Of a stretch of 64,000 nucleotides of DNA, positions 18,159 to 59,490 are shown piece by piece; positions within the stretch are counted from its first letter, which is position 1; each line of letters begins with the position of its first letter. Under the pieces are notes generated by a model that made no database searches, was not told the origin of the DNA, and saw only the letters and a list, made by a program, of their open reading frames with translations. The position numbers and the translations under genes were made by a program. Source of the DNA: an uncultured SAR116 cluster alpha proteobacterium (GTDB lineage Bacteria > Pseudomonadota > Alphaproteobacteria > Puniceispirillales > Marisalimonadaceae); the NCBI GenBank assembly GCA_902616615.1, contig CACMTN010000001.1, forward strand, positions 84,521-148,520, given 5' to 3'.

Positions 18159-18235
18159 GGCGGAGTAGCTCAGCTGGTTAGAGCACCGGAATCATAATCC
18201 GGGTGTCGGGGGTTCAAGTCCCTCCTCCGCTACCA
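18159..18235 (+). tRNA. tRNA-Met (CAT), elongator type, island integration site
   Basis: A 77-nt cloverleaf with encoded CCA. The acceptor stem GGCGGAG pairs with CTCCGCT (first pair G-U). The D-arm contains AGCTCAGCTGGTTAGAGC, the anticodon stem CCGGA/TCCGG encloses loop ATCATAA with anticodon CAT, and the T-arm GGGGGTTCAAGTCCCTC is normal. The GGC start and loop resemble elongator tRNA-Met rather than initiator (no C-A mismatch at 1-72) or tRNA-Ile(CAT). The 3' 48 nt are repeated at 28568-28615, marking it as the attachment site of the downstream island. Confidence 0.96.
18188..18235 (+). repeat. attL: direct repeat, tRNA side
   Basis: 48 bp identical to 28568-28615, running from the 3' half of the anticodon stem-loop through the encoded CCA. 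The flanking bases differ (C against G before it, A against T after it), so these are the exact limits of identity. It lies within the functional tRNA gene. Confidence 0.96.
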
Positions 18236-18243
18236 AAAAACCT

Positions 18244-18306
18244 AATAAAAACAATGACTTAGGTAATTTGGTAAAAAATCAAATTGACATTGACACACAT
18301 TGACAC
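18244..18306 (+). promoter_or_regulatory. Left-end candidate integrase arm sites
   Basis: Contains the 18-mer at 18244-18261 (AATAAAAACAATGACTTA), repeated exactly at 28536-28553, and two copies of CATTGACAC at 18288-18296 and 18298-18306. Two copies of the same 9-mer occur near the right end. Repeated short motifs just inside both ends of an element are typical arm-type binding sites for tyrosine integrases. The 9-mers also sit at the integrase gene start, so autoregulation is possible. Confidence 0.6.
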
Positions 18307-18319
18307 TAATTTTGTATCA

Positions 18320-19498
18320 ATGTCACAAACTCAAGCTAGAACACAAACAGAGAGTATTTTTAGAGGTTTATCAATCTTTAAGAGTGTTCGTTCACCCAAA
18401 TATCATTGTCGAATCTATGTTGGTAATAATAAACACATAGTAAAATCAACAGGTGAAACAAGTAAGATTGAGGCAAGAAAAGTTGCTATGGAACTTTTCC
18501 ATGATTTGCAAAATAAAAAACGTATTGGAGTTCCAGATAATCAAACATTCAAATTTTTTTCCAATAAATTAATAGAACAAGAATTATTAAAAAAAAGTAA
18601 AAGGTTAGGGTCTGATACTAAGTCATACATTCTTAGAGATGAATATGGGTTAGATGCATACTTTGGCGATACAAATATTAAACAAATTACAACACACGAT
18701 ATAAGATTATATTTGGAAAAATTAGATAAGTCTTCTTCCAAACCATTGGCACACTCAACTAAAAGTAAATATCTTATAGCCATAAAAAAGGTCTTTAGAA
18801 TTGCATATGAGATGACAATTATTGATAAGATACCATTACTTCCAAAATTAGACTCAAGGTTAAAAGATAATCCAAGACCATCATTTAATGAAAAAGAGTA
18901 CAAAAAATTATTAAAGGTGACTCGTGAAGAAGTTGAAAAGGGTGTAAAGGTGAGGGGGATACCTCTTACAATGGAACATTATTATTTCATAGTGTTTATG
19001 GTTCATACTTTTTTAAGGCCTATTGAGTCAGAAATTTTTTCAATCAAACATAAAGATATAAAGGTTATTAAAGAAAAGCCTGAAAGATTAGAAATTCAAG
19101 TGATGGGTAAAACTGGCTATAGACAAGTTTCATCATTATCTTATGCAGTAGATTTTTATGAAAAACTTTGTGAATTAAATAAAGGTCATACTGAAGATGA
19201 TTTTGTATTTTTTCCAGATTATAAGAATAGAAGAACAGCCCTAAGAAATTTTAATAGACAATTTGGTTATCTGTTAGACCAGAGCAATTTAAGAACAGAT
19301 TCATTTGGAACAAGAAGAACACCTTATGGACTTCGTCATTATTCATTACAAACAAGATTAAGAATGAGCAAAGGAAAAGTTAATATATATTGGTTGGCCA
19401 AAAATGCAGGTACATCAGTTGAACAACTAGAAAGATTTTATCTTAAAAATATGGAATTGAATGATGAGATTGTCCAAAATCTACAAACATTTGGTTAA
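18320..19498 (+). CDS. int: Tyrosine recombinase / integrase of the island
   Basis: Site-specific recombinase that would insert and excise the island at tRNA-Met. The start is taken as ATG 18320; the frame is open upstream to a TTG at 18284, inside the arm-site repeats. The 392-residue protein has an N-terminal arm-binding-like region, a SAM-like core-binding domain (about 60-170), and a catalytic domain. Catalytic Arg I is in HTFLRPIESE and the Arg II box is PYGLRHYSLQTRL (first His of H-x-x-R replaced by Tyr). The nucleophile Tyr is in QLERFYLKN near the C-terminus. It lies directly downstream of its target tRNA, as in other integrative islands. Confidence 0.92.
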   Translation: MSQTQARTQTESIFRGLSIFKSVRSPKYHCRIYVGNNKHIVKSTGETSKIEARKVAMELFHDLQNKKRIGVPDNQTFKFFSNKLIEQELLKKSKRLGSDTKSYILRDEYGLDAYFGDTNIKQITTHDIRLYLEKLDKSSSKPLAHSTKSKYLIAIKKVFRIAYEMTIIDKIPLLPKLDSRLKDNPRPSFNEKEYKKLLKVTREEVEKGVKVRGIPLTMEHYYFIVFMVHTFLRPIESEIFSIKHKDIKVIKEKPERLEIQVMGKTGYRQVSSLSYAVDFYEKLCELNKGHTEDDFVFFPDYKNRRTALRNFNRQFGYLLDQSNLRTDSFGTRRTPYGLRHYSLQTRLRMSKGKVNIYWLAKNAGTSVEQLERFYLKNMELNDEIVQNLQTFG

Positions 19499-20034: not shown

Positions 20035-20525
20035 TGAAGAATGTAGATGTTCTTTTAATGTTAGATAGACTTGAGTAGGTCGGTTGTAATACTCCAAGAG
20101 CCTTGATGGAAGTTGAGGCCGAATTCCTTTGAGTTAACACAAAGGTGCAATTCCATACTTGAGTATTGTGAGTCAGTTTTACATCAATACATTCCTAATC
20201 ATTGAAAAATGTCTGCCCAGGCTAAAATGGCAGTAAATAATTATTAGAAAGACAAGGGACTAATCATACCCTTATTAGATATACAAGGTAATCACATCTG
20301 CAGTATATCTAAACCGAAGTTGAGTAGAGAAAGAGGTCTTAATGCATAATCCCAGAGATATGGTTTTGACTGAATGTGAAGCACAGGTTCTTCCCTCACA
20401 ACTTAATTGATTCCAAAGGTGATACTATTGGTTAATTAAGTTTCTCTGATGTGATGTGTTCTTCTGGTTGCCAGACTCAAGTAATAGAAATTCATACTTA
20501 ATCTACATGGTTAAGTATGTCTTTT
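20035..20525 (+). ncRNA. Candidate structured non-coding RNA (unclassified)
   Basis: This stretch of about 490 nt has no plausible gene but a run of local stems. They are 20070-20077/20090-20098 (one bulge); GAATTCCTTTG 20121-20131 with 20140-20153 (3-nt bulge); 20213-20217/20229-20233; a perfect 10-bp TTAGATATAC stem at 20275-20284/20303-20312; CTTAATT 20402-20408/20434-20440 with CCAA/TTGG inside; TCTGG 20463-20467/20471-20475; and a perfect 9-bp CATACTTAA stem at 20493-20501/20511-20519, followed by TCTTTT. ACTTGAGT (20069-20076) and ACTCAAGT (20475-20482) could pair across nearly the whole region. It resembles in style the large mobile-element RNAs, but I cannot assign a class. Confidence 0.45.
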
Positions 20526-21841: not shown

Positions 21842-22147
21842 TTAAAACCTAGTCTTTCTTGGAACATATTCTTTACAAAATGTATTGAAGAGTTTGGTAT
21901 ATGCATCTACTTCTTTATAAAAATAATCTAACCACATAATACTCTCTTTATCATATGGCATATTAACAATTTCTTGGTCAGTCCTCTTTTTTCGTTTATG
22001 TAAAACTATGTTTTGATAACTACTTTCCGTTAAAATTTCTATTACTGCACAATGTTGTGATGTGAAACCTTGGTCAGTTTTAGGGTCGTTGGCATATGAA
22101 CCAAAACTAATGAACATAAATGTAAGTGTTGTAATGAATAGTTTCAT
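21842..22147 (-). CDS. Small exported protein, paralogue of the 22620-22889 protein
   Basis: 101 residues with a signal peptide (MKLFITTLTFMFISFGSYA), presumably periplasmic. The C-terminal half (LDYFYKEVDAYTKLFNTFCKE) is almost the same as in the 22620-22889 protein, and the signal peptides are nearly identical, so the genes arose by duplication. Two cysteines (CAVIE, FCKEY) could form a disulfide. Function unknown. It is the last gene of the minus-strand run that starts at 26896; ribosome site AAAGGAGT. Confidence 0.7.
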   Translation of the reverse strand: MKLFITTLTFMFISFGSYANDPKTDQGFTSQHCAVIEILTESSYQNIVLHKRKKRTDQEIVNMPYDKESIMWLDYFYKEVDAYTKLFNTFCKEYVPRKTRF

Positions 22148-22221
22148 AATGACTCCTTTAAGTTTTACCTACTTAATGGATTCAATACTTTATTATATAA
22201 ACTATCAACTAAATGTTTTGT
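22094..22221 (-). repeat. 128-bp direct repeat, downstream copy
   Basis: Matches 22836-22963 with four mismatches by hand alignment. It contains the start and signal peptide of the 21842-22147 gene plus a non-coding relic of the last 15 or so codons of the methyltransferase fusion gene (TKHLVDSLYNKVLNPLSR read on the minus strand). The relic has no start of its own. The lipoprotein gene ends at the repeat boundary (stop at 22223). Confidence 0.85.
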
Positions 22222-22619: not shown

Positions 22620-22889
22620 CTAGTCTTTACAAAATGTGTTGTAAAGTTTGGTATATGCATCAATTTCTTTATAAAAATAATCAAGGAATTTAATAGAATC
22701 AGAATTGTAAGGTCTACGAACAATATCTTTACCTGTACCACTTTTTTTAAGATTAAAGATATTGTCCCAAGCAGTATCGGCCTCAAGTTTTAAGATATAA
22801 CAAGCCTTACCATCGAAAAGTTTTCTTTCATCAGAATATGAACCAAAACTAATGAACATAAATGTAAGTGTTGTGATTAATAGTTTCAT
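22620..22889 (-). CDS. Small exported protein, first copy
   Basis: 89 residues with a signal peptide (MKLLITTLTFMFISFGSYS), then a helical domain ending in LDYFYKEIDAYTKLYNTFCKD. It is a paralogue of the protein at 21842-22147. Two cysteines are present (ACYIL, FCKD). It begins 17 bp after the methyltransferase fusion gene with ribosome site AAAGGAGT, so it is probably co-transcribed with the modification operon. Function unknown; an exported protein makes an odd partner for DNA modification. Confidence 0.7.
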   Translation of the reverse strand: MKLLITTLTFMFISFGSYSDERKLFDGKACYILKLEADTAWDNIFNLKKSGTGKDIVRRPYNSDSIKFLDYFYKEIDAYTKLYNTFCKD

Positions 22890-22963
22890 AATGACTCCTT
22901 TAAGTTTTACCTGCTTAATGGATTCAATACTTTATTATATAAACTTTCAACTAAATGTTTTGT
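22836..22963 (-). repeat. 128-bp direct repeat, upstream copy
   Basis: Parent copy of 22094-22221. It spans the real 3' end of the methyltransferase fusion gene, the intergenic ribosome site and the signal-peptide codons of the first small exported-protein gene. The arrangement shows that a segment containing the fusion gene tail and the small gene was duplicated downstream. Confidence 0.85.
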
Positions 22964-25048
22964 GAGTAATGGCGGAACCATTCTACCAATTCTTTCGGCT
23001 CTTTGATTAAACGAACCAGATAGTTTGAAATCATCTGGTAAAGAAGTAAGTCTCTTTAATTCATTAAGAGTGAAAGTTCTATTTTCTAGAGGGTGATATT
23101 GTCCACCAAAATTTTTTAACTGTGCCCCAGTTTGTGTAAGAGTATTAATTGGTTGGTGAAATGCTGCACGATTAGTATTGAAGTATAAATTCTTAAACTC
23201 TGGGTTATCGTAATTAGCCCTATAATTTTCTGATGGGTCAGTAGGTATCAATTTAAGAATTTCATATGCAGTTGAAGTTCTACATTTTCTTTTAGTAAGG
23301 TTTACTTCTTTTTTATTTAATTCTACACCCTGAAGTGCATCATATAATGATGTTTCAAAAGAACTACCTTTAGGATAAAGACTCAATATGTCATTATCAG
23401 ATTCAATATTTGTTTGTATTGCTATATCTTTTCTTACACCTACTAAAAAGAGTCTTCTTCTTTTTTGTGGAACACCAAAATTAGAACTCTTTAATACCTT
23501 AAAATTTACAAAAAATTTATCTCTTAACTTCTGAAGTGAATCTTCAAAAACAGCTGATGTTTGTATTTCTGGAACATTCTCTAAAATAATTATTCTAGGT
23601 GTTATAGAGTGAGCCAATTCAACAAATTCATATATCAGTAATCCAATATCATCTTGAACTGTGTCAGAATATTTTACATTCTTTTGTTCAATCTTTTTCT
23701 CACCTTTTCCAACTTGTGAAAAAGTAGAACATGGTGGAGAGCCGTCTAAAATATCTAATTCATTTTTTTCGATACCATATGAATTAAACCATTCAATTAT
23801 ACCTTTTTCACCCTTACCAGATTTAGTGATTTTTCTAATATCACTTCCATCAATTGGAGTATCTGGAAAGTTCATAGAATATGTTTTTATAGCCTCTGGA
23901 ATGAATTCATTTATGAGTAATACTTTTCCACCTGCAAGTCTGTATCCAGTACTAGAACCACCACCACCTGCAAATGTAGAAACAACTGTAAATAATTCTC
24001 TACTAGATGATTCATAAACATCTTTCATTTTGTAGGGTTCAAACTTAATTATCTTTCCATCATCAGGTGTAAAATTAATTATGTTTTTTGCGTCAGCATA
24101 ATTTCTTAAATTTTTTGAAATCCATAATCTATGAGCCTCATTTGATTTTTGATGTTTTTTAATTTTTTTCTCATCTAATGTTGAATGTAGTCTTGTAAGT
24201 GATGTAAGACATTTTGTTACATCATCAGTTTTATAATTTTTGAAATTTATTTCCTTATCAAAAATAATTGGTTCAAAAAAATCAGTCATAGAACCACCTT
24301 TTTGTAATGGTTCATTTTTAACTTTCATCATTCCAATTTTTTCAAACTTCTCTGGGAAACAATCTTTATAAAAACTCTTGTTATATGGTTTGTTCATATC
24401 GTTATCAGACAATCCATATAGAGTTTCTTTGAAAGTCTTACCCTGTAATGGACAACAAATAATTATGCCCATTTCTTTTGCCACAGCAACAATTTTTTTT
24501 GATGCATCTGAGGTGATATTATTATTTACAATATAATCCCAAAATTCTTTTGAATTTTTTTTATTCCAAACTGCATGTTTTCTGTTATCTGGTGAGGGAT
24601 TAAAACCACAGACTATTTTATCTAACCCTAATTCTTTACATTTCTGAAACATTGACAAAAAGGGATAAAGAACTTCAAGTTCAGTTTTTTTGTTTACGCC
24701 ATATTCATAGACAAGTTTTTCAAAAATATCTCTAGGATTTTCTTTAGGTATTATTACTTTATGAAATTCCCAACCTAAAATTTTACAAGTTTTTTCAGCC
24801 TGTTCACAATCTCTGGAATATACGCCTTCTCTTTCATAAGAAATACAGATTGGTTCTAACCCAAGATACCAACCCATCAATCCGAGTAATGTAGAATCAA
24901 CACCACCAGATAAAAATATTGGAAGTTTATTATTTGCTGTAGCAGATAAAAATCCCATCTTAGTGTACTGTTTTGTAATTTCGTTGATGATATTTTTTTG
25001 GAGATTATTCAATGCAACACAACCAATCTTTTCGTTTAGTTTTTTCAC
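22907..25048 (-). CDS. PP-loop ATPase (asparagine-synthetase-like) fused to cytosine-5 DNA methyltransferase
   Basis: 713 residues, two enzymes in one chain. Residues 1-230: N-type ATP-pyrophosphatase domain with PP-loop SGGVDST (47-53) and an Asn-synthetase-like second strand (ICISYEREG, then EQAEKTCKILGWEFHKV); no glutaminase domain. Residues 352-713: C5-methyltransferase with motif I FAGGGGSSTGY (359-369), catalytic Cys440 in SPPCSTFS, ENV 490-492, QKRRRLFLVG 528-537, a target-recognition region about 545-650, and motif X ending IGRMVPPLL. In motif X the usual GN is GR (Arg689), the position where Asn to Lys/Arg is recalled to switch engineered M.MpeI to carboxy-SAM. It starts inside the preceding gene (44-bp overlap). 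Inference: it transfers a carboxymethyl group to cytosine, and the PP-loop domain activates the carboxylate for amidation or another conjugation. Plain methylation remains possible. Confidence 0.88.
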   Translation of the reverse strand: MKKLNEKIGCVALNNLQKNIINEITKQYTKMGFLSATANNKLPIFLSGGVDSTLLGLMGWYLGLEPICISYEREGVYSRDCEQAEKTCKILGWEFHKVIIPKENPRDIFEKLVYEYGVNKKTELEVLYPFLSMFQKCKELGLDKIVCGFNPSPDNRKHAVWNKKNSKEFWDYIVNNNITSDASKKIVAVAKEMGIIICCPLQGKTFKETLYGLSDNDMNKPYNKSFYKDCFPEKFEKIGMMKVKNEPLQKGGSMTDFFEPIIFDKEINFKNYKTDDVTKCLTSLTRLHSTLDEKKIKKHQKSNEAHRLWISKNLRNYADAKNIINFTPDDGKIIKFEPYKMKDVYESSSRELFTVVSTFAGGGGSSTGYRLAGGKVLLINEFIPEAIKTYSMNFPDTPIDGSDIRKITKSGKGEKGIIEWFNSYGIEKNELDILDGSPPCSTFSQVGKGEKKIEQKNVKYSDTVQDDIGLLIYEFVELAHSITPRIIILENVPEIQTSAVFEDSLQKLRDKFFVNFKVLKSSNFGVPQKRRRLFLVGVRKDIAIQTNIESDNDILSLYPKGSSFETSLYDALQGVELNKKEVNLTKRKCRTSTAYEILKLIPTDPSENYRANYDNPEFKNLYFNTNRAAFHQPINTLTQTGAQLKNFGGQYHPLENRTFTLNELKRLTSLPDDFKLSGSFNQRAERIGRMVPPLLTKHLVESLYNKVLNPLSR

Positions 25049-25967
25049 CTACAAGTAAATAGGGGGCTGTTCCTAATTGTTCTGCATACTCTAATAAGTG
25101 TTGTAAATTACTCGATTTAATTGGAAGTTTATTTGATTTAGAGATACCTCTTACACCTCTTACAAATACAGTTGAATCATTCAAACTAGAAAACCCAGAT
25201 ATATTTTGTTCTGGTATCAAAGTATCTCTGTAATTAAACCCAAAGGCATATAAACATTTTAAGGCTGTTTCAATATCATTCATTGTACTTTGAAAAACAC
25301 AATGTAATGTTCCGGAGTGTGAAGTTTTTCTAATGTCAGCCAATGGATATTCTTCATAAATGTAATCATCTAATTCTAAATTTCTCCATCTCGACAATTG
25401 TTCTGGAGTAGGAATTATTACAAAAGTAGAAAAATATTTCTTAGCACTGATTAATTTTTCAAGGTTAAAAACATTACCTTGTAGTTCTGTTGATTTTCCA
25501 AAGGCATTTTCAATTTTATTTTGTGTGTCAGTTGTCTTTGCATCTCGAACAATTTCTCTGTGCTCTCTCATAGTTTGGTCTACAAAGGTTTTTTCTGTAT
25601 CAGGTGTAATTTTATCTTCAATAAGTGTTACAAATTTTTGAGAGCCTTCATCTTCTCCATAATGTGATTGATATTGTCTATCTAAATTAGTTAGTTCATA
25701 TAATGTCGAAAATGAACCTGGCAGTTTATTCCTATAATTCAATAGATTTTGATTTGAACCTATAGATACCCATTTAGATAATGTACCTTTGGACATTCCT
25801 ATTTTTTCTGCCAATTGATTTTGAGAAGTATCATCAAGTTGAGTTACTGCTTCATTTATTACAATAGCCATATCGATTATACTTTTTTGAACTTCGGTTT
25901 TGGCTTGTAAAATTCTTTTTACATGCTCATTAAGGGTGAGAGTATTTGGTAAAATTACTTCATTCAT
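25005..25967 (-). CDS. Helix-turn-helix protein with degenerate MT-A70 methyltransferase domain
   Basis: 320 residues. An HTH of KorB/ParB style lies at about 49-70 (NQLAEKIGMSKGTLSKWVSIG), followed by a helical linker. The C-terminal 178-320 matches MT-A70 in order: an early strand (TFVIIPTPEQ), YPLADI, a strand and helix DIETALKCLYAFGFNYRDT, TVFVRGVRG where active enzymes have LLLVGxRG, and the terminal AEQLGTAPYLLVGEKTKRKDW. The catalytic DPPW is replaced by IPTPEQ (185-190), so it is probably inactive. By analogy with METTL14-type partners it may bind DNA and guide or activate the neighbouring enzyme. It lies 2 bp from the CmoA-like gene and overlaps the fusion gene by 44 bp, so tight coupling is expected. 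ParB itself is less likely, because no ParB N-terminal CTPase motifs are seen. Confidence 0.75.
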   Translation of the reverse strand: MNEVILPNTLTLNEHVKRILQAKTEVQKSIIDMAIVINEAVTQLDDTSQNQLAEKIGMSKGTLSKWVSIGSNQNLLNYRNKLPGSFSTLYELTNLDRQYQSHYGEDEGSQKFVTLIEDKITPDTEKTFVDQTMREHREIVRDAKTTDTQNKIENAFGKSTELQGNVFNLEKLISAKKYFSTFVIIPTPEQLSRWRNLELDDYIYEEYPLADIRKTSHSGTLHCVFQSTMNDIETALKCLYAFGFNYRDTLIPEQNISGFSSLNDSTVFVRGVRGISKSNKLPIKSSNLQHLLEYAEQLGTAPYLLVGEKTKRKDWLCCIE

Positions 25968-25969
25968 AC

Positions 25970-26896
25970 TTAATCTTTTTTGATTGCAATCAGACCAATA
26001 AAATTAAAGTTTCTCCAAAAAACCTGAATATCTTTGAAACCAACTTTTTTAAGATTATTGATTATTGTTTCTTCAGTATCCAACTTGGCCAATTTTCGTA
26101 ATACTTGTTCTTTATCTAACAACTCTTCTTCTGAAAAGAACTGTCTCTTGTATCCCATATACATGAAATCCATCATGTTCTGGAACTTTGCATCAGGAGA
26201 GAATACTTTTTCACACAAAACAAAACCACCACCTTTGATTAGGTCATAATTGAAAATGTCATCTAACATTCTTTCTCTATCAGCCTCCGGAATAAATTGA
26301 AGCGTGAACATAGACACCATGAATGACGAATACTTTTCTTTTCGTTTCATTCTTTCTGGGGCTTTCCAATTACGAACATCACAAGGTAAATTAATCATTA
26401 TGGTACTCGTATCATTTTTTATTATCTTCTTTTTTTTACCTCTCAAATCTGCATCTGTGAAATGTTTGAGAAATGTAGGATTACCCTCAACACCAAAATA
26501 ATTCACATTATCTATGTCAATATTTGCAGCCATGATTCTCCTAATCATAGTACCCTCACTACAACCTAAATCGTAAACACTACTATTAGGTGTAATAAAA
26601 TACTGACTAATCTTTTCGACATCATCTCTTAGATGGTCATAACCTCTTATGGATTTGTGTATGTGGTCATCAAAATAAGGTGCCATGTTAGAGAATGAGA
26701 ATTTTTTATAATCACGAGCATACTCACCATATTTTTTCACATTTTTTTTCTGATTTTTTTCTGAAATTTTATCGAGTCTTTTATACTCTTCCTGTACGGC
26801 CTTTAATTTATCTTTCATATCTTTCATTGCTGCATATTCAGCCTCTTTCAATTTAAGAGCCTTTTCTTTTATACTTTTATACAGTTCATCATTCAT
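25970..26896 (-). CDS. CmoA-like carboxy-SAM synthase family protein
   Basis: 308 residues. After a lysine-rich helical extension (1-65) absent from E. coli CmoA, the match is close: DDHIHKSIRGY (76-86), VYDLGCSEG (107-115, SAM loop), CDVRNW, FTLQF (197-201), GGGFVLCEKVFSPDAKF, YKRQFFSEEELLDK, and the C-terminal FNFIGLIAIK. CmoA turns SAM and prephenate into carboxy-S-adenosyl-methionine, normally used by CmoB on tRNA wobble uridine. Here no cmoB is present, and the neighbour is a DNA cytosine methyltransferase. E. coli Arg199, recalled as contacting the carboxylate from the second subunit, aligns with Glu263, so the product needs proof; a divergent methyltransferase is the alternative. It is first in the operon, behind the promoter at 26967-26995. 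Confidence 0.85.
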   Translation of the reverse strand: MNDELYKSIKEKALKLKEAEYAAMKDMKDKLKAVQEEYKRLDKISEKNQKKNVKKYGEYARDYKKFSFSNMAPYFDDHIHKSIRGYDHLRDDVEKISQYFITPNSSVYDLGCSEGTMIRRIMAANIDIDNVNYFGVEGNPTFLKHFTDADLRGKKKKIIKNDTSTIMINLPCDVRNWKAPERMKRKEKYSSFMVSMFTLQFIPEADRERMLDDIFNYDLIKGGGFVLCEKVFSPDAKFQNMMDFMYMGYKRQFFSEEELLDKEQVLRKLAKLDTEETIINNLKKVGFKDIQVFWRNFNFIGLIAIKKD

Positions 26897-27075: not shown

Positions 27076-27705
27076 TTATCGTGCATACTCCAAATCTCCA
27101 CCTAAGTCTTCAATACTATCAATCAAATCTTTCTCAATAACTTTTTTGATGGTATCACTGCCAACTTTCAATTGTGACTTAATGTTTCTGATTGATGCTC
27201 CAGCTTTTTTCATTTCAAGAATTTTGTTTCTTGTAAGACCATTGATAGATTTCTTTCCGCCAATTCTACCTTTCTTCCTAGCCTTTTCCAAACCAGACCT
27301 TACTCGTTCAGAAATAAGGTCTTTCTCATATTGAGAAACTGCATTCATTACGTTAAAGAAAAAATCTCCAACAATAGTACTCGTATCTACATTTTGATTC
27401 TTAATTAACAAATCAATTTTTTTAGATTTTAATATTGCCGATATCTCACACATATTTTGAACTGAACGACCAAGTCTACTCAACTCAAGTGTAACTACCA
27501 TTTCAAACTTTCTGGTCATTGCATCTTTCAACATTTGGTCTAATGCAGGTCGTGATTTTATTGAACCAGAGATTCCCTCATCAACATATTCTTTGATGAT
27601 TGTGTAATTATGATTATCACACAATTCTCTCAACTCTATGAGTTGTCTTTCACAAGACTGTTCTGTGGTGCTCACACGAGCATAAATACAAACTTTTTTT
27701 GTCAT
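27076..27705 (-). CDS. Serine recombinase (resolvase/invertase family)
   Basis: 209 residues. Catalytic Ser12 lies in YARVSTTEQ, the Arg motif is ELSRLGRSVQN (about 74-84), and the long E-helix follows with ISERVRSGLEKARKKG. The C-terminal HTH of Hin/resolvase type is at about 157-190 (LTRNKILEMKKAGASIRNI). Size and layout match small serine resolvases and invertases. It may resolve dimers of the excised island or invert a segment. No paired inverted crossover sites were recognised by eye. It ends at the terminator 27007-27031. Confidence 0.9.
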   Translation of the reverse strand: MTKKVCIYARVSTTEQSCERQLIELRELCDNHNYTIIKEYVDEGISGSIKSRPALDQMLKDAMTRKFEMVVTLELSRLGRSVQNMCEISAILKSKKIDLLIKNQNVDTSTIVGDFFFNVMNAVSQYEKDLISERVRSGLEKARKKGRIGGKKSINGLTRNKILEMKKAGASIRNIKSQLKVGSDTIKKVIEKDLIDSIEDLGGDLEYAR

Positions 27706-28567: not shown

Positions 28568-28615
28568 GGAATCATAATCCGGGTGTCGGGGGTTCAAGTC
28601 CCTCCTCCGCTACCA
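28568..28615 (+). repeat. attR: displaced 3' part of tRNA-Met
   Basis: 48 bp identical to 18188-18235, ending in the CCA. Upstream sequence does not continue the cloverleaf, so it is not a second tRNA gene but the leftover 3' end of the original target after integration. Confidence 0.96.
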
Positions 28616-31219: not shown

Positions 31220-31331
31220 TATTCACAAATGATCCAAAATTTTCTTGTTAATATTTCATATTATACTACATAAATCATTTATAATGACGTATTATTTTGT
31301 AAGCTAAAAATAATAAAATTTGGAGTTTATT

Positions 31332-31556
31332 ATGTCGGTTTATGCAATTAAAGTATGGTTGTCTAAAAATGAAAAAGACTGGTTTTTTTATAAAGATTTA
31401 GAAGACAACATAGTGCATACATGGAGTAGAAGGGAAAAGGCAGAAGAAGTTTTGAGCCTTTTAACTTGTCATAAAGCTGAAATCACAGAAGATATACCTG
31501 CTCCAGCGTTAGCAAGATCAACTGAAAAAAAACAAAAATTAAAAGAAGAAAGTTAA
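31332..31556 (+). CDS. Small hypothetical protein
   Basis: 74 residues starting at ATG 31332 behind TTTGGAG. Sequence: a strand-like VYAIKVWLSKNEKDWFFYKD, then REKAEEVLSLLTCHKAEI and a lysine/glutamate-rich tail. No signal or membrane segment; no family recognised. It is followed 13 bp later by another small gene, so they may be co-transcribed. Confidence 0.55.
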   Translation: MSVYAIKVWLSKNEKDWFFYKDLEDNIVHTWSRREKAEEVLSLLTCHKAEITEDIPAPALARSTEKKQKLKEES

Positions 31557-31569
31557 TAATTGATCTAAA

Positions 31570-31866
31570 GTGCAGGGATCAAATAAAAATAATTGGAATG
31601 TAAGATTTGAGGTTACATTTTACGGTAATGATCCAAACAAAGGATCGTTTAGAGAAATTAAAGAAGATAATATAGTTTTTAATGATGAATTTGAAATTAA
31701 AAATAAATTACCGTTTAGTAATAATGCAAATGTTGAAATAAACTTTTTACTTTGGGTCGAAACATTACCAATTGAAAAGCTAACAAAATTACCCCATGAT
31801 TATAATGATCCAACAATAAAGTATGATCAAGAATCAATCCAAGTTTTAGAAGTTAAAAAGTTATAA
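31570..31866 (+). CDS. Small hypothetical protein
   Basis: 98 residues from GTG 31570, which has a weak ribosome site. It is beta-rich and acidic (WNVRFEVTFYGND, NVEINFLLWVETLP) with no signal or known motif. Its placement between two other small cytoplasmic proteins offers no functional clue. Confidence 0.5.
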   Translation: MQGSNKNNWNVRFEVTFYGNDPNKGSFREIKEDNIVFNDEFEIKNKLPFSNNANVEINFLLWVETLPIEKLTKLPHDYNDPTIKYDQESIQVLEVKKL

Positions 31867-31899
31867 TTTTGAGATGAATAAATTAGGAGGTTAGTTATT

Positions 31900-32301
31900 A
31901 TGAACTTAAAAGGTGGATGTTACTGTGGTGAAATACGATACGAATCCAAAGGAGAAGTTCAAGCCTCAATACAATGTCATTGTAGAGAATGCCAATATAT
32001 AACTGGTGGCAATCCTAATGTTATTATGATAATGCCACTAGAAGGATTTAAATTTATTAGCGGAAAACCTAGAGAGTTTAAAAGAAGTGATCTGGAAAAT
32101 GCTGTGACTAGACTTTTTTGTCAAAAATGTGGAACAGCAATTGGAACAAGAAATCCAATGAGACCAGAATCAATAATTTTGAAAGTAGGTACGTTTGATG
32201 ACCCATCGATTTTTGATCCTAAAATAGCAATTTTTACAATTGATAAACAAAAATTTCATCATATAGATGATAATTTAAAATGTTTTGATAAAAGGCCTTA
32301 A
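31900..32301 (+). CDS. GFA/CENP-V family zinc protein
   Basis: 133 residues. The GFA signature is clear: GGCYCGEIRY at the N-terminus, CHCRECQ in the middle and FCQKCGTAIG for the structural zinc. Named family members include S-(hydroxymethyl)glutathione synthase, but most members have no known substrate, so only the family is claimed. The ribosome site AGGAGG precedes the ATG. It precedes the glycosyltransferase gene by 14 bp. Confidence 0.88.
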   Translation: MNLKGGCYCGEIRYESKGEVQASIQCHCRECQYITGGNPNVIMIMPLEGFKFISGKPREFKRSDLENAVTRLFCQKCGTAIGTRNPMRPESIILKVGTFDDPSIFDPKIAIFTIDKQKFHHIDDNLKCFDKRP

Positions 32302-32315
32302 AACAAAAATTGTTA

Positions 32316-33185
32316 ATGTCAAATTTTCTAGATACTTCAGATATATCTGTTGTAATACCCACATATAATAGATGTAAATTGCTAAATAGAGCTATAAGTT
32401 CTGTGTTAAACCAAACTATTAGTGTCAGAGAAATTATTATTGTCGATAATGGTTCGACAGATAACACGCTTGAAATGATTTCGTCGTTATATCCTGAAAT
32501 AACATATATTTATGAAAAGAGAAAAGGGGTAAGTATAGCTAGAAACATAGGAATTAAGAATTGTCAGTCGACATGGATTGCTTTTTTAGATTCTGATGAT
32601 GCCTGGGAACCGCAAAAACTAGAAAAACAACTTTTTTTTACAAATAATATAAATAAAAAATATAGACTTATTCATACTAATGAAATTTGGTTTAAACATA
32701 ATAAATTTCAAAATCAATTAAAGAAACATGAAAAATCTGGTGGAGATATTTTTAAAAAATCTCTTAAACTTTGCTGCATATCACCAAGTAGCGTTTTTAT
32801 TAAAAAAGAAATCTTTGATGATTATGGTTATTTTGATGAAGATCTAGAAGTTTGTGAAGATTATGATATGTGGATAAGAATAACATCAAAAGAAGAGGTT
32901 GGTTTTCTAGATAATCCATTAGTAATAAAATATGGAGGACATGAAGACCAACTCTCAAAAAAATATTGGGGAATGGATAGATTTAGAATCAAATCTTTAG
33001 AAAAAAATTTAAATAATAATTGGTTTACAGCAGAGCAAAAAAAAAGTGTTCTCAATATTTTAATAAAAAAATTGTCTATTATATCAAATGGAGCAAAAAA
33101 AAGAGATAATGAAGAAATATATAAAAAATATTTGGATAAATTGAATTACTGGTCTTTGGAATTAAATAAATATAAAAATGAATAA
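32316..33185 (+). CDS. Family 2 glycosyltransferase
   Basis: 289 residues from ATG 32316. GT-A fold features are VVIPTYNRCKLLNRAI, the nucleotide-binding DNGSTDN and the metal-binding DSDDAW, with the acceptor-side acidic DEDLEVCEDYDMWIRI. Substrate unknown. It is the first of four tightly spaced genes (overlap of 8 bp with the nucleosidase), suggesting that it and the following enzymes act in one process. Confidence 0.88.
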   Translation: MSNFLDTSDISVVIPTYNRCKLLNRAISSVLNQTISVREIIIVDNGSTDNTLEMISSLYPEITYIYEKRKGVSIARNIGIKNCQSTWIAFLDSDDAWEPQKLEKQLFFTNNINKKYRLIHTNEIWFKHNKFQNQLKKHEKSGGDIFKKSLKLCCISPSSVFIKKEIFDDYGYFDEDLEVCEDYDMWIRITSKEEVGFLDNPLVIKYGGHEDQLSKKYWGMDRFRIKSLEKNLNNNWFTAEQKKSVLNILIKKLSIISNGAKKRDNEEIYKKYLDKLNYWSLELNKYKNE

Positions 33186-34029
33186 TCTTAAAATAAAAAA
33201 AACTTCTATTAGATGGGTAGTAGCTTTAAAGGAAGAGGCTCAAATAATTTTAGAATATTTTAAATTAAAAGCAGTTGATGAAAAAACCATTTACCCAATT
33301 TATAAAAACGAAGAAGAGACACATTGGTTAATTATATCTGGTATTGGCCGAAGTAATGCATCAGCTTCAACAGCTTACCTTTACTTGTATAGTAAAGCAT
33401 CAAAATGTACATCATGGATTAATGTAGGAATTGTAGGATCAGATAAGGGTAATTATGGAGATTTGTTTTTAGTGGATAAAATTTCAACAGATCAAGGGAA
33501 AAAAAGCACATATCCATCAACAATGCCAAAGACATCTTTGCCAAAGATGCATTTATATACCTCTGATATTCCTATAACAGATTATTCAACTCATGAATTG
33601 ATTGACATGGAAGGAAGTGCTTTTTTTGATATTGCCAGTAAGTTAACTTCCAAAGAATTTATTTGTTTGATAAAGGTAATATCTGACGGCCCAAAAAATA
33701 GTATTAAAGAAATAACTAAGTCAAAAATAAGTAATTTAATAAAAGATAACCTAACGAAGATTATTGATGTGGTTTCATATTACGAGAGACTATCAGAGGA
33801 AGAATTTCAAATAAAAGAAAAACCTAAATTATTTTATGACATCACTTCGAAATGGCATTTTACAGCAACACAATCTTATAAACTTGAAACGTTATTAAGG
33901 CGCGTTGAAGTTTTTTGTAATAAAAGAGATTTAAAAGAAATAATTAAAAGTTGTGAAACGTCTAATTCTGTTATTAATGTTTTAAATTCGAAGATTAAAA
34001 AAAATATAGTCAATTGGAGTAAATTTTGA
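33178..34029 (+). CDS. MTA/SAH-nucleosidase-like purine phosphorylase family protein
   Basis: 283 residues. The nucleoside phosphorylase fold is visible in VVALKEEAQII, ISGIGRSNASAST and WINVGIVGSDKG, and in the purine/ribose site LIDMEGSAFFDIA followed by IKVISDGP. A C-terminal helical extension of about 80 residues (after 210) is not part of the core enzyme. It probably cleaves a nucleoside such as methylthioadenosine, S-adenosylhomocysteine or 5'-deoxyadenosine. Its 4-bp overlap with the SPL-like radical SAM gene makes removal of 5'-deoxyadenosine an attractive guess. Confidence 0.8.
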   Translation: MNNLKIKKTSIRWVVALKEEAQIILEYFKLKAVDEKTIYPIYKNEEETHWLIISGIGRSNASASTAYLYLYSKASKCTSWINVGIVGSDKGNYGDLFLVDKISTDQGKKSTYPSTMPKTSLPKMHLYTSDIPITDYSTHELIDMEGSAFFDIASKLTSKEFICLIKVISDGPKNSIKEITKSKISNLIKDNLTKIIDVVSYYERLSEEEFQIKEKPKLFYDITSKWHFTATQSYKLETLLRRVEVFCNKRDLKEIIKSCETSNSVINVLNSKIKKNIVNWSKF

Positions 34030-35018
34030 TTGAAACAATATACGTTGAAAAAGCAATTAAAAACCATCCAAGAACGAAATTAATTTTAGAGAAATTTAAA
34101 AAATCTAGAATAATATCAATAAATAAATATGGAGAAATATTTAATAAAAGAAATCAAAATTTTAGAATTCAAAAAACTAATCCTTGTCTAATCCTTGCTT
34201 ACAAAAAAGATAGTTTTGTATTGCCAGCACCCAAAGGATTTGGGATAGGCTCATCAAATAACTTTTATTTTTCACACATGTATAATTGTATTTATGATTG
34301 TAGATACTGCTTTCTACAAGGAATGTATTCATCAGCTAATTATGTGGTTTTTGTTAATTTTGAAGATTTTGATAATGCTATTAAAAAGACAATAAAAAAT
34401 AATAATGGTTCAAAAATAACTTTTTTTTCTGGTTATGATTGTGATTCACTGGCATTGGAAAATGTTACAGGATTTGCAAAACACATTTTATCATTTTTTA
34501 AAACATACTCGCAAATTGAAATAGAATTTAGAACAAAAAGTATTCAAAAAGAACCATTTTTGTCAATGAAACCAATGCAAAATGTTATTTTAGCATATAG
34601 CTTAATGCCAGAATTAATGTCAAATTCTTTAGATAATAAGGCACCTTCTATTTCAAAACGTATCCGAGTGATTTCTGAATTAGCCTCAAAAGGGTGGAAA
34701 ATAGGTTTGAGATTTGATCCATTGATATTTGGCCAAAATTGGAAAGAATTGTACCGAGAACTTTTAGAAAATATTTTCAAAAATATAACACCTAATAATT
34801 TACATTCCGTAAGCTTTGGATCATTAAGGTTTCCAAAAAAAATGTTTAAAAATATTTTTAAACTTTATCCAAAAGAACCTCTATTTACTAGTCCCTTTTC
34901 TCTTAACAACAAAATGATATCATATGACATTGAAATAGAGGAAGAAATGACTTCATTTTGTAAAAACTTATCATTAAAGTATATTAATGAAGATCAAATA
35001 TTTAAATGTTCTATCTAA
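34026..35018 (+). CDS. Spore photoproduct lyase-like radical SAM protein
   Basis: 330 residues from TTG 34026, overlapping the nucleosidase stop. The radical-SAM cluster motif C-x3-C-x2-C is Cys88, Cys92, Cys95 in YNCIYDCRYC, followed by FLQG as in SPL. A cysteine at 139 (GYDCDSL) lies close to the conserved hydrogen-donor cysteine of SPL (about 140/141). Later landmarks IGLRFDPLIFGQNWKELY and VSFGSLRFPKKM also match SPL. True SPL repairs the 5-thyminyl-dihydrothymine UV lesion in spores; in a non-sporulating bacterium the substrate is unproven. Confidence 0.82.
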   Translation: MIETIYVEKAIKNHPRTKLILEKFKKSRIISINKYGEIFNKRNQNFRIQKTNPCLILAYKKDSFVLPAPKGFGIGSSNNFYFSHMYNCIYDCRYCFLQGMYSSANYVVFVNFEDFDNAIKKTIKNNNGSKITFFSGYDCDSLALENVTGFAKHILSFFKTYSQIEIEFRTKSIQKEPFLSMKPMQNVILAYSLMPELMSNSLDNKAPSISKRIRVISELASKGWKIGLRFDPLIFGQNWKELYRELLENIFKNITPNNLHSVSFGSLRFPKKMFKNIFKLYPKEPLFTSPFSLNNKMISYDIEIEEEMTSFCKNLSLKYINEDQIFKCSI

Positions 35019-35036
35019 ATTTATTGGTAAATATTT

Positions 35037-35741
35037 ATGAAAGATAAATGTATTTTGATTACAGGAAGTTCAAGTGGAATAGGTTATGAAATTACCTCAA
35101 AACTTCTTGATTTAGGAGCAAAGGTAATTGGAATTGCCAGAAATTATGACAGAAGTAAATTAGAAAATAAGAATTATATTACATACAAATGTGATGTAAG
35201 TGCTCGTAAAAAATTAGAATTACTTTTAAAGCAAATTTTAAAAAGTCACCCAGAAATTAATTGTCTCATAAGTAATGCTGGATATGGTGATTTTGGTCCT
35301 CTTGAAAATTTTTCTACATTAAATATCGAAAACTTTGTGTCTACAAACTTAACATCACATATAGTCATAACAAAACTTTTATTACCTCATTTTAAAAAAA
35401 TTAAAATGGGAGACATCATTTATATTGGATCTGAAGCCGGACTATTAGGTGCAAAGAATGGAACTCTTTATTGCGCAGCAAAGTTTGGGTTAAGAGGTTT
35501 TTCTGAAGCTTTGAGTAAAGATGTTGCAAGAAAAAATATAAGAGTAAGTATAATAAATCCAGGTATGGTTAGAACTAGTTTTTTTGAAAATTTAAATTTT
35601 GAGCCAGGAAATAATGAAGAAAACACTATTAACATAAAAGATATATCTTCAACTATAGCTTATATCCTAAATCTTAGTAGAAATACTATTGTAGATGAAA
35701 TTAATCTTTCACCTTCAAAGAAGGTAATTAAATTCAAATGA
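35037..35741 (+). CDS. Short-chain dehydrogenase/reductase
   Basis: 234 residues. Rossmann motif TGSSSGIGYE at the N-terminus, NAGYGDF, catalytic Ser in YIGSEAGLLG and Y-x3-K in YCAAKFG; a classical SDR with the coenzyme-specificity region RNYDRSK suggesting NADP. It begins 18 bp after the SPL-like gene and ends that four-gene run. Substrate unknown. Confidence 0.88.
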   Translation: MKDKCILITGSSSGIGYEITSKLLDLGAKVIGIARNYDRSKLENKNYITYKCDVSARKKLELLLKQILKSHPEINCLISNAGYGDFGPLENFSTLNIENFVSTNLTSHIVITKLLLPHFKKIKMGDIIYIGSEAGLLGAKNGTLYCAAKFGLRGFSEALSKDVARKNIRVSIINPGMVRTSFFENLNFEPGNNEENTINIKDISSTIAYILNLSRNTIVDEINLSPSKKVIKFK

Positions 35742-35742
35742 C

Positions 35743-36264
35743 TTAATCAATAATAGTAACTGCACGTCTATTTTTAGACCAAGCCATTGTATTTGATCCA
35801 ACTACAGCTGGCTTCTCTTTTCCATAAGAAATAACCTTAATCCTATCAGGGTCAATTCCTTGAATAACTAAGTAGTCTCTCACTGCTGTAGCTCTTTGCT
35901 CACCTAAAGCTAAGTTATACTCTCTAGTGCCACGTTCATCACAATGACCTTCGACTATAAAATTAAGATCTGTGTTAGCTCTTAAAAACCTTGATTGTGC
36001 ATCAAGAAGTATTTTTGCGCTGGTGTCTAATTTTGCAGAGTCATAGTCAAATAATACTCTATCACCTACAGCAATTAGTTTGTCTGCAGCAGTTTGTTTT
36101 GCAGCAGCAAAAAGGCTTTTCTTTTTATCAACAGAGCTTGAAGCTGAAGTATTACCTGATGCTGATGAAGATGTATCACTTACTACCTTTTGCGATGCAG
36201 TCTCACATGCTGAAAGTAATAAAATTGAAGAAATAGCTGTTGCCATTAAAGTTTTATTTTTCAT
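35743..36264 (-). CDS. pal: Peptidoglycan-associated lipoprotein Pal
   Basis: 173 residues, outer-membrane lipoprotein that binds peptidoglycan in the Tol-Pal system. Lipobox LLSAC, a Ser-rich linker, then the OmpA C-terminal domain (about 65-173) with VLFDYDSAKLD, the diaminopimelate-binding VEGHCDERGTREYNLALGEQRA and the final WSKNRRAVTI. Usually pal follows tolB; here it stands apart, next to a small gene that overlaps its start by 11 bp. Confidence 0.95.
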   Translation of the reverse strand: MKNKTLMATAISSILLLSACETASQKVVSDTSSSASGNTSASSSVDKKKSLFAAAKQTAADKLIAVGDRVLFDYDSAKLDTSAKILLDAQSRFLRANTDLNFIVEGHCDERGTREYNLALGEQRATAVRDYLVIQGIDPDRIKVISYGKEKPAVVGSNTMAWSKNRRAVTIID

Positions 36265-57780: not shown

Positions 57781-59490
57781 CTAAAATAAAAAATATCTCT
57801 GAGCCATAGGTAATTCTGTAGCTGGCTCGCATGTAAGAATTTCCCCATCAGCTGTAACTTCATATGTTTCAGGATCAACAGAAATATCTGGGCAATAATT
57901 ATTATAAACCATATCTTGTTTGGAGATATCTCTCGTTTTCTCCACCGCAACAGTATTTTTAGCAAGTTTTAATGAGTCTAAACTTCCAGATGTAATAGAA
58001 TCTTTACTTACAAAAGTAATTGAAGATGTCTCTAGAGATCTTCCATAAGAAGAAAACATTGGTCTTGTATATATAGGTTGAGGAGTTGGAATTGATGCAT
58101 TAGGATCACCCATTTGAGCACAAGCAATGCTTCCACCAAGCATCACAATCTCTGGCTTTACTCCAAAAAAAGCTGGATCCCATATCACAATATCAGCTCT
58201 TTTACCTTCAGTTATTGATCCTATATGTTTAGATAAACCGTGAGTTATAGCTGGATTAATTGTATATTTAGCTACATATCTTTTAACTCTAACATTATCA
58301 TTATCACCTTTTTCTTCCTTTAGACGACCTCTTTGAACTTTCATTTTGTGAGCTGTTTGCCAAGTTCTGATAATAACTTCTCCAACCCTTCCCATTGCTT
58401 GACTGTCAGAAGCTATAATTGAAAAGGCACCTAAATCATGGAGGATATCCTCTGCAGCTATAGTCTCTTTTCTAATTCTGCTTTCAGCAAAGGCAACGTC
58501 TTCTGGAATTGATTTATCTAAATGATGACATACCATGAGCATATCCAAATGCTCCTCTAAAGTATTTATAGTATAGGGTCTTGTTGGATTAGTTGATGAT
58601 GGTATTACATTTTCATTCCCGCATACTTTAATGATATCAGGTGCATGGCCTCCACCAGCACCTTCAGTATGAAAGGCATGAATTGTTCTATTATTAATAG
58701 CTTTTATAGTATTTTCTACAAATCCACTTTCATTCAATGTATCTGTATGTATCATTACTTGAACATCCATTTTGTCAGCTACATTTAGACAGTTATCTAT
58801 AGCGCCAGGAGTGGTTCCCCAATCTTCGTGTAATTTAAGTGCGCAAGCTCCAGCATTTACCTGTTCAATTAATCCCTCTGGTTTAGAAGAATTGCCTTTA
58901 CCAGCAAATGCAAGATTCATAGAAAAAGCATCCGCTGATTGTATCATTTTACCTATATGCCAAGATCCAGGTGTGCATGTTGTTGCCAATGTTCCATGAG
59001 CAGGTCCAGTACCACCTCCTAGCATTGTTGTTAAACCTGAGTGCAGAGCATCGTCAATTTGTTGAGGACATATATAGTGGATGTGAGAATCAAATCCTCC
59101 TGCTGTAATGATTTTACCTTCACCTGCGATTATTTCTGTGCCAGGTCCAATAATAATATCAATTTTTGGTTGAGTGTCAGGATTTCCCGATTTTCCAATT
59201 TTTTGAATAATACCATCTTTAATTCCAATATCGGCTTTAAATATTCCATTTATATCAACTATCAGTGCGTTTGTAATAACAGTGTCAACAGCGCCATCTT
59301 TTCTTGTAACTTGTGATTGGCCCATACCGTCTCTAATTACTTTTCCACCCCCAAATTTAACTTCCTCGCCATAGACAGTTAAATCATTTTCAACTTCTAT
59401 AAACAAGTCTGTGTCAGCCAATCTAACTTTGTCACCAGTCGTGGGGCCGAACATTTCTGCATATGATGATCTTGTTATTTTTGAACTCAT
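57781..59490 (-). CDS. ureC: Urease alpha subunit UreC
   Basis: 569 residues, catalytic subunit hydrolysing urea to ammonia and carbamate. Nickel and active-site residues are in place: His136/His138 (SHIH), carbamylated Lys219 in ALKLHEDWG, His248 (MIHTD), His274 ([11 protein letters not shown]), and the mobile-flap Cys321-His322-His323. Length is that of the free alpha subunit. Overlaps the ureB stop by one base (TAATG). Confidence 0.98.

What the first reader, a model, noticed from the sequence alone, without database searches (positions are those of the whole stretch)
22907..26896. Candidate natural DNA carboxymethylation and amidation system: CmoA-like enzyme, pseudo-MT-A70 and PP-loop/C5-methyltransferase fusion
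Seen in sequence: three tightly coupled genes (gaps of 2 bp, then a 44-bp overlap) encode a CmoA homologue, an HTH protein with a dead MT-A70 domain, and a fusion of an Asn-synthetase-like PP-loop domain with a C5 DNA methyltransferase. Established: CmoA makes carboxy-SAM, which CmoB uses on tRNA; PP-loop enzymes of the Asn synthetase group adenylate carboxylates for attack by an amine. Inference: carboxy-SAM is used by the methyltransferase to write 5-carboxymethylcytosine in DNA, and the PP-loop domain converts it to 5-carbamoylmethylcytosine or another conjugate. The parts form a complete donor, writer and tailoring set. I know of no described natural system with this composition.
Basis: partly seen in the sequence, partly recalled or inferred. 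Interest (0 to 1): 0.96.

Follow-up and report, generated by a model that had tools for sequence, protein, structure and literature searches.

The report
Mobile-island DNA carboxymethylation-and-coupling operon
A small mobile island in a bacterium carries three adjacent genes predicted to put a carboxymethyl group on cytosines in DNA and then likely couple it to an amine; the basic chemistry was reported from a phage in 2025, but this version, with writer and coupling enzyme fused in one protein, belongs to a separate branch that was not seen in the viral sequences examined.

Summary
In detail: CmoA-like (25970-26896), HTH/pseudo-MT-A70 (25005-25967) and PP-loop/C5-methyltransferase fusion (22907-25048), all on the minus strand. 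The window proteins are homologues of all three (37%, 41%, 29% identity) and keep CmoX's diagnostic SPPC and Arg350. New here: (1) the operon lies on a 10.4-kb island at tRNA-Met (perfect 48-bp repeats, empty site in a relative, no virion gene recognised); (2) CmoY and CmoX are one protein, in a CmoX clade separate from the phage clade; 0 of 160 distinct viral CmoX frames read were fused or closer to it; (3) three of 14 positions invariant in stand-alone CmoY are changed (D126, R150, H224) and no glutaminase domain is present, so the amine may be neither glycine nor glutamine-derived ammonia; (4) the partner is an MT-A70 fold without DPPW, not ParB. Product, amine and purpose are untested. New variant of a known kind.

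The parts
22907..25048 (-). CmoY-CmoX fusion: PP-loop (asparagine-synthetase-like) amide ligase, residues about 37-285 (24940-24194), low-confidence linker 313-330, C5-cytosine carboxymethyltransferase residues about 335-713 (24046-22910). PP-loop SGGVDS 24910-24893; SPPC 23740-23729; carboxy-SAM Arg (R689 = SpCmoX R350) 22984-22982
25005..25967 (-). P2: HTH protein with an MT-A70-fold domain that lacks DPPW
25970..26896 (-). CmoA-like predicted carboxy-SAM synthase of the phage (SpCmoA) type, with an N-terminal extension of about 65 aa
27076..27705 (-). small serine recombinase/resolvase upstream of CmoA, same strand (a resolvase also precedes CmoA in L009)
18284..19498 (+). tyrosine integrase beside tRNA-Met
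18159..18235 (+). intact tRNA-Met(cat), integration site
18188..18235 (+). 48-bp att repeat, tRNA copy
28568..28615 (+). 48-bp att repeat, distal copy, 100% identical

Best explanation
The operon is predicted to make a hypermodified cytosine in DNA: the CmoA-like protein would convert SAM to carboxy-SAM, the C-terminal CmoX half of the fused protein would transfer the carboxymethyl group to C5 of cytosine, the N-terminal CmoY half would likely activate that carboxylate with ATP and join it to an amine, and the pseudo-MT-A70 protein is likely a DNA-binding partner that positions the enzyme. Shown directly: the gene order, the fusion, the diagnostic residues, and a 10.4-kb island between perfect repeats of tRNA-Met with its own integrase. 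Inferred from characterised homologues: each catalytic step. Inferred from residue differences only: an amine other than glycine. Inferred with no direct test: the mark serves the mobile element as camouflage or self-tag against nucleases met on transfer.
Against: No biochemistry. E. coli CmoA Arg199, described as the Cx-SAM anchor (PMC3663124), is Glu here; it is Glu in active SpCmoA too. The CmoA score (103 bits) is below the NCBIfam cut-off of 193. P2 is not tied to CmoX: related resident genes occur in the genus without it, and P2 was not detected in L010 and L030, which have CmoX. The P2 tree warns of long branches. Eleven of 14 positions invariant in stand-alone CmoY are kept, so glycine is not excluded. 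No nuclease that would make the mark useful was recognised.
Confidence: 0.78

Rival explanations
1. The CmoY half uses glycine, so the base is 5-glycylcarboxymethylcytosine as in phage S-B43; only the gene fusion and host are new.
For: Homology to SpCmoY over most of its length; 11 of the 14 positions listed as invariant in 40 stand-alone rows are kept in the window protein.
Against: The other three differ: D126 is a gap, R150 is V174, H224 is N245; in 92 fused rows the commonest letters there reach only 43%, 27% and 29%; R251 (95% in stand-alone rows) is Y272. The alignment is at 29% identity, and the paper's own list of glycine-binding residues is in supplementary files that I could not read.
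Confidence: 0.32
2. The product is 5-carbamoylmethylcytosine, made with ammonia.
For: Phage ligases with a glutaminase domain are suggested to use glutamine-derived ammonia (PMC12783734).
Against: The PP-loop begins at residue 47; no glutaminase domain matched.
Confidence: 0.14
3. It is an ordinary 5-methylcytosine methyltransferase using SAM, with leftover neighbours.
For: PF00145 family membership.
Against: Arg at the position that is Asn in HhaI; R350N SpCmoX accepts neither cofactor (PMC12783734); recurrent CmoA and CmoY partners.
Confidence: 0.05
4. The island is a restriction-modification or defence island whose partner nuclease recognises unmodified DNA.
For: Related loci hold candidates: an Mrr-like gene about 5 kb from CmoYX in L010; a 200-aa ORF of unknown family beside CmoX in G042.
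Against: No nuclease was recognised in the window island: of nine non-operon island ORFs searched with PHROGs, seven had no match and two were integrase and invertase; the 25 of 56 PADLOC models shown for the fusion are methyltransferases. Smaller or overlapping ORFs were not searched.
Confidence: 0.15
5. The CmoA-like protein serves tRNA wobble modification and its place in the operon is accidental.
For: TIGR00740 similarity.
Against: No CmoB over cut-off in the genome, 0 of 136 genomes of the order with CmoA over cut-off, clear relation to SpCmoA. The genome is 75% complete, so absence is not proof.
Confidence: 0.03

Closest known systems
CmoA-CmoY-CmoX of Synechococcus phage S-B43 (Yang et al. 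2025, PMC12783734; MN018232)
   Same: All three enzymes are homologous; same order CmoA, CmoY, CmoX; SPPC and Arg350 kept; CmoA with Glu at the E. coli Arg199 position in both.
   Different: CmoY and CmoX are fused; P2 (pseudo-MT-A70) sits between CmoA and CmoYX; located on a bacterial integrative island; 3 of 14 invariant CmoY positions changed; separate CmoX clade (100/99 support).
Pseudomonas phage PaBG cluster
   Same: C5-methylase, CmoA-like and asparagine-synthase-like genes together.
   Different: Separate genes with a ParB-like protein; no significant similarity between that ParB-like protein and P2.
Inactive MT-A70 partners (METTL14, MTA9)
   Same: MT-A70 fold without DPPW; the partner role of METTL14 and MTA9 is recalled.
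   Different: No active MT-A70 protein was seen in the operon; P2 has its own HTH.
Small marine phage satellites (PICMIs, tycheposons; seen only in a search listing)
   Same: Small size, chromosomal, no virion gene recognised; tRNA site and tyrosine integrase as a common trait are recalled.
   Different: No satellite hallmark gene identified; not shown to be a satellite.

Membership tests
CmoX (DNA cytosine C5-carboxymethyltransferase) | SPPC motif | tested here: met
   C440 in SPPC
CmoX (DNA cytosine C5-carboxymethyltransferase) | Arg at SpCmoX position 350 | tested here: met
   R689; of 120 listed rows, the window's own included, 118 have R and 2 have N
CmoX (DNA cytosine C5-carboxymethyltransferase) | Uses Cx-SAM and not SAM | not testable with these tools
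   needs enzyme assay
CmoX (DNA cytosine C5-carboxymethyltransferase) | GC recognition motif (of SpCmoX) | not testable with these tools
   known for SpCmoX only
CmoA, NCBIfam equivalog TIGR00740 | score over curated cut-off 193.3 bits | tested here: not met
   103.3 bits
CmoA, E. coli type | Arg199 salt bridge to the carboxylate | tested here: not met
   Glu here, and Glu in active SpCmoA
SpCmoA-type phage Cx-SAM synthase | sequence relation to SpCmoA | tested here: met
   37% identity over 241 columns, E 1e-51
CmoY (AMP-forming amide ligase) | PP-loop and catalytic-region positions shared with SpCmoY | tested here: met
CmoY, glycine type | positions invariant in the stand-alone set | tested here: inconclusive
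   11 of 14 kept; D126, R150, H224 not; which of them bind glycine was not seen
CmoY, glutamine-dependent type | N-terminal glutaminase domain | tested here: not met
   PP-loop starts at residue 47; no such domain matched
Active MT-A70 methyltransferase (P2) | DPPW motif | tested here: not met
   absent in 20 of 20 members
MT-A70 fold (P2) | fold | tested here: met
   Foldseek to MTA1 E 9e-7, probability 1.00; TM 0.35 by query, 0.49 by target
Integrative element | integrase, direct repeats at a tRNA, empty site in a relative | tested here: met
   the one clean empty site also lacks a further 2.6 kb
Prophage | virion or packaging genes | tested here: not met
   12 island ORFs searched with PHROGs: no virion or packaging family; smaller or overlapping ORFs not searched
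Restriction-modification system | cognate nuclease | tested here: inconclusive
   none recognised; seven island ORFs have no PHROGs family

The most novel reading that the evidence does not exclude
A cellular, non-phage branch of 5-carboxymethylcytosine hypermodification: one bifunctional enzyme writes the carboxymethyl group and couples it to a new amine, giving a DNA base not yet described, guided by a pseudo-MT-A70 DNA-binding partner, and spread as cargo of small tRNA-integrated islands that use the base as their own passport through bacterial and phage nucleases.
Probability: 0.33. Interest if true: 0.82.

Novelty: new variant of a known kind. Interest (0 to 1): 0.57.

Why it matters
The 2025 report presents 5cxmC hypermodification as a phage trait. 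Here the same donor-writer-ligase logic sits in bacterial chromosomes on a mobile island, as a fused enzyme in its own clade, with a ligase that differs at some positions invariant in the phage-type enzymes. That makes three things directly testable: whether bacteria carry carboxymethyl-derived DNA bases, which amine this branch attaches, and whether an inactive MT-A70 protein can steer a C5 writer. A single-chain writer-plus-ligase would also be a handy tool for DNA labelling.

Tried and rejected
Rejected or disfavoured: tRNA role of CmoA; ordinary 5mC; relation of P2 to the ParB-like protein of PaBG or to the 340-aa gene beside Bradyrhizobium CmoYX. Led nowhere: a single-protein viral scan with the fusion (7 stretches, none confirmed) and a P2 viral scan (31 stretches, none confirmed); plasmids (3626 of 72,556 records match, 0 with one place covering 80% of the fusion); PADLOC. 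The VIA-align rows cover mainly residues 315-713, so the fold of the PP-loop half was not tested against PDB. Not tested: ligase pocket geometry, DNA target motif, expression.

Limits of the surveys. I first counted 221 reading frames on 199 of 203 loci, then recounted with the 40 loci left out there and with identical or contained frames merged: 160 distinct frames on 235 of 243 loci. 111 of the 160 had not been used to build the viral HMM. Absence of fused copies holds for these, not for all of IMG/VR. The tree used 28 of 91 full-length rows plus Bradyrhizobium and L009, 11 unfused database rows, and every fourth long viral row; unfused database rows come from short contigs and some may be fragments, while G042 is unfused on a complete contig. 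L009's contig ends before the Arg. Working notes (G042 CmoA 'broken?'; the ORF is intact; '27 relatives'; N199 'not kept') are corrected here. On recheck the glycine rival was raised from 0.28 to 0.32 and the novel case lowered from 0.35 to 0.33, because N199 is kept.

Full report
What is there. A small serine recombinase lies upstream on the same strand at 27076-27705. The start of the fusion is uncertain (GTG 25048 or ATG 24958).

The chemistry is known from a phage. Yang et al. 2025 (PMC12783734; abstract, introduction, results and discussion read; supplements not read) showed that Synechococcus phage S-B43 CmoA makes carboxy-SAM, CmoX writes 5-carboxymethylcytosine at GC, and CmoY couples it to glycine. 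They searched for CmoX by SPPC and Arg350, which replaces Asn304 of HhaI. A library search for CmoX, CmoY or carboxymethylcytosine since 2019 gave no other relevant title among the 15 listed of 41 papers; preprints and most subscription papers are not in the library.

CmoA. The score is below the NCBIfam cut-off (103 against 193 bits). E. coli Arg199, called the cofactor's anchor by Byrne et al. 2013 (PMC3663124, passages read), is Glu here. It is also Glu in SpCmoA, which is active with a kcat about ten times that of the E. coli enzyme, and in 62 of 67 viral rows, the other 5 being gaps; PaBG has Arg and L020, L027 and L028 have Gln. Loss of the anchor may ease release of carboxy-SAM; that is inference. 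The genome has no CmoB over the cut-off, and none of 136 genomes of the order has a CmoA over the cut-off.

The ligase half. The table lists 14 positions that are invariant in 40 stand-alone rows. The window protein keeps 11 of them, among them K98, E102, N199, K204 and N247 of SpCmoY, and has the PP-loop. It lacks D126 (gap), R150 (V) and H224 (N); in 92 fused rows the commonest letters there reach 43%, 27% and 29%. No glutaminase domain is present. A different amine is a fair reading, not shown; glycine remains open. The paper itself foresees ligases with other amines.

A mobile island. tRNA-Met (18159-18235) is followed by a tyrosine integrase, and the 48 bp at 18188-18235 recur perfectly at 28568-28615, which gives a 10,380-bp unit. 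The tRNA with its left neighbour was present in all 11 relatives whose loci were returned, of 27 relatives with a match to the left gene. Four of these were fetched with more flank. In G012 the tRNA is followed after about 30 bp by sequence 86% identical to window 31238-36000, so the island and a further 2.6 kb are absent there; G036 has 2.5 kb of other sequence, G019 showed no right-flank match and the G015 contig ends. PHROGs searches of 12 island ORFs gave no virion family. The fusion was found in none of 36 other genomes of the genus examined; among 60 relatives only G042, of the same order, has a match, unfused; 2 of 385 genomes of the class, the same two.

Relatives on chromosomes. G042, a one-contig genome of 2,753,527 bp (recalled as the size of Candidatus Puniceispirillum marinum IMCC1322, SAR116; not verified), has CmoA-P2-CmoX some kilobases from a resolvase and an integrase. 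An alphaproteobacterial MAG (L009) has a glmS-like gene (by eye), resolvase, CmoA, P2, CmoYX. Bradyrhizobium jicamae (L010) has an integrase, CmoYX and CmoA, no P2 detected; Reichenbachiella faecimaris (L030) has a CmoA-CmoX fusion of 764 aa with a separate CmoY. Others look like prophages by eye (terminase-like ORFs near L012, L020, L027), so bacterial location alone does not mean non-phage.

A separate clade. In a 77-row tree the fused rows, G042 and the 11 unfused database rows form one clade (100/99), sister to a clade of 26 viral rows plus one contig binned as Chloroflexi (99/97); PaBG, Endozoicomonas and three Bacteroidota rows fall outside both. Fusion looks ancestral in the first clade, with later loss of the ligase half at least in G042. 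Of 160 distinct CmoX reading frames on 235 of 243 viral loci read, none scored closer to the island clade, none was fused to CmoY or CmoA, and no locus has P2; 111 of the 160 were not used to build the viral model. P2 had no match in 50,697 phage records.

P2. The model (pLDDT 85.6, pTM 0.61) has a helical N-terminal part and an MT-A70 fold, Pfam finds HTH_3 just over its cut-off, and 20 of 20 members lack DPPW. Against a tight link with CmoX, P2-family genes occur in 31 of 136 genomes of the order (29 of them of this genus), including a second copy in this genome (G000:C3); in the six such loci read, no CmoA or CmoX was detected. The six resident copies form their own clade. So P2 is probably a lineage-specific DNA-binding protein recruited to the operon. 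The paper reports ParBc proteins beside many phage CmoX genes, but I found no sequence relation to the one tested.

Verdict. What remains new is a bacterial, mobile-island branch with a fused writer-ligase, a partly altered ligase and a pseudo-MT-A70 partner.

Noticed in passing
L030:7116-10227 (Reichenbachiella faecimaris): CmoA and CmoX fused in one 764-aa protein with a separate CmoY next to it, a second way of fusing the same pathway.
   Followed up: partly
L210, L211, L212 (G023, G072, G073): CmoA-like genes inside clusters that look, by eye, like surface-sugar synthesis (sialic-acid-like synthase, cytidylyltransferase, amidotransferases), with no CmoX detected in the stretch; perhaps another use of carboxy-SAM.
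   Followed up: no
L209 (G013): glmU- and glmS-like genes (by eye), a C5-methyltransferase with Asn (GNAVP) not Arg, a CmoA-like gene and the start of a glutaminase-type asparagine synthase at a contig end; the operon of L009 also sits after a glmS-like gene.
   Followed up: partly
CmoA proteins beside CmoX: The E. coli Arg199 position is Glu in 62 of 67 viral rows (5 gaps) and Glu or Gln in the bacterial rows read, Arg in phage PaBG; this may separate DNA-type from tRNA-type CmoA.
   Followed up: partly
window 20218-20321: Rfam Methylobacterium-1 RNA (61.5 bits) inside the island; 27 of 136 genomes of the order have one, and one of ten loci read (G042) has a relative of the island's integrase beside it.
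   Followed up: partly
window 22094-22221 and 22836-22963: A 128-bp direct repeat (97%) that includes the last codons of the fusion gene and the start of a small secreted-looking protein gene, which is present twice.
   Followed up: no
G000:C3:71616-72539 and relatives L184-L188: A second, resident P2-family gene at a conserved place (beside a MazG-like gene, AzlC/AzlD-like genes and endonuclease III, by eye); function unknown.
   Followed up: partly
L169:7984-8586 (G042): A 200-aa ORF with no Pfam match directly after CmoX; could be a partner enzyme.
   Followed up: no
window 59051-59335: Rfam 5' ureB small RNA (77.1 bits), far from the island.
   Followed up: no
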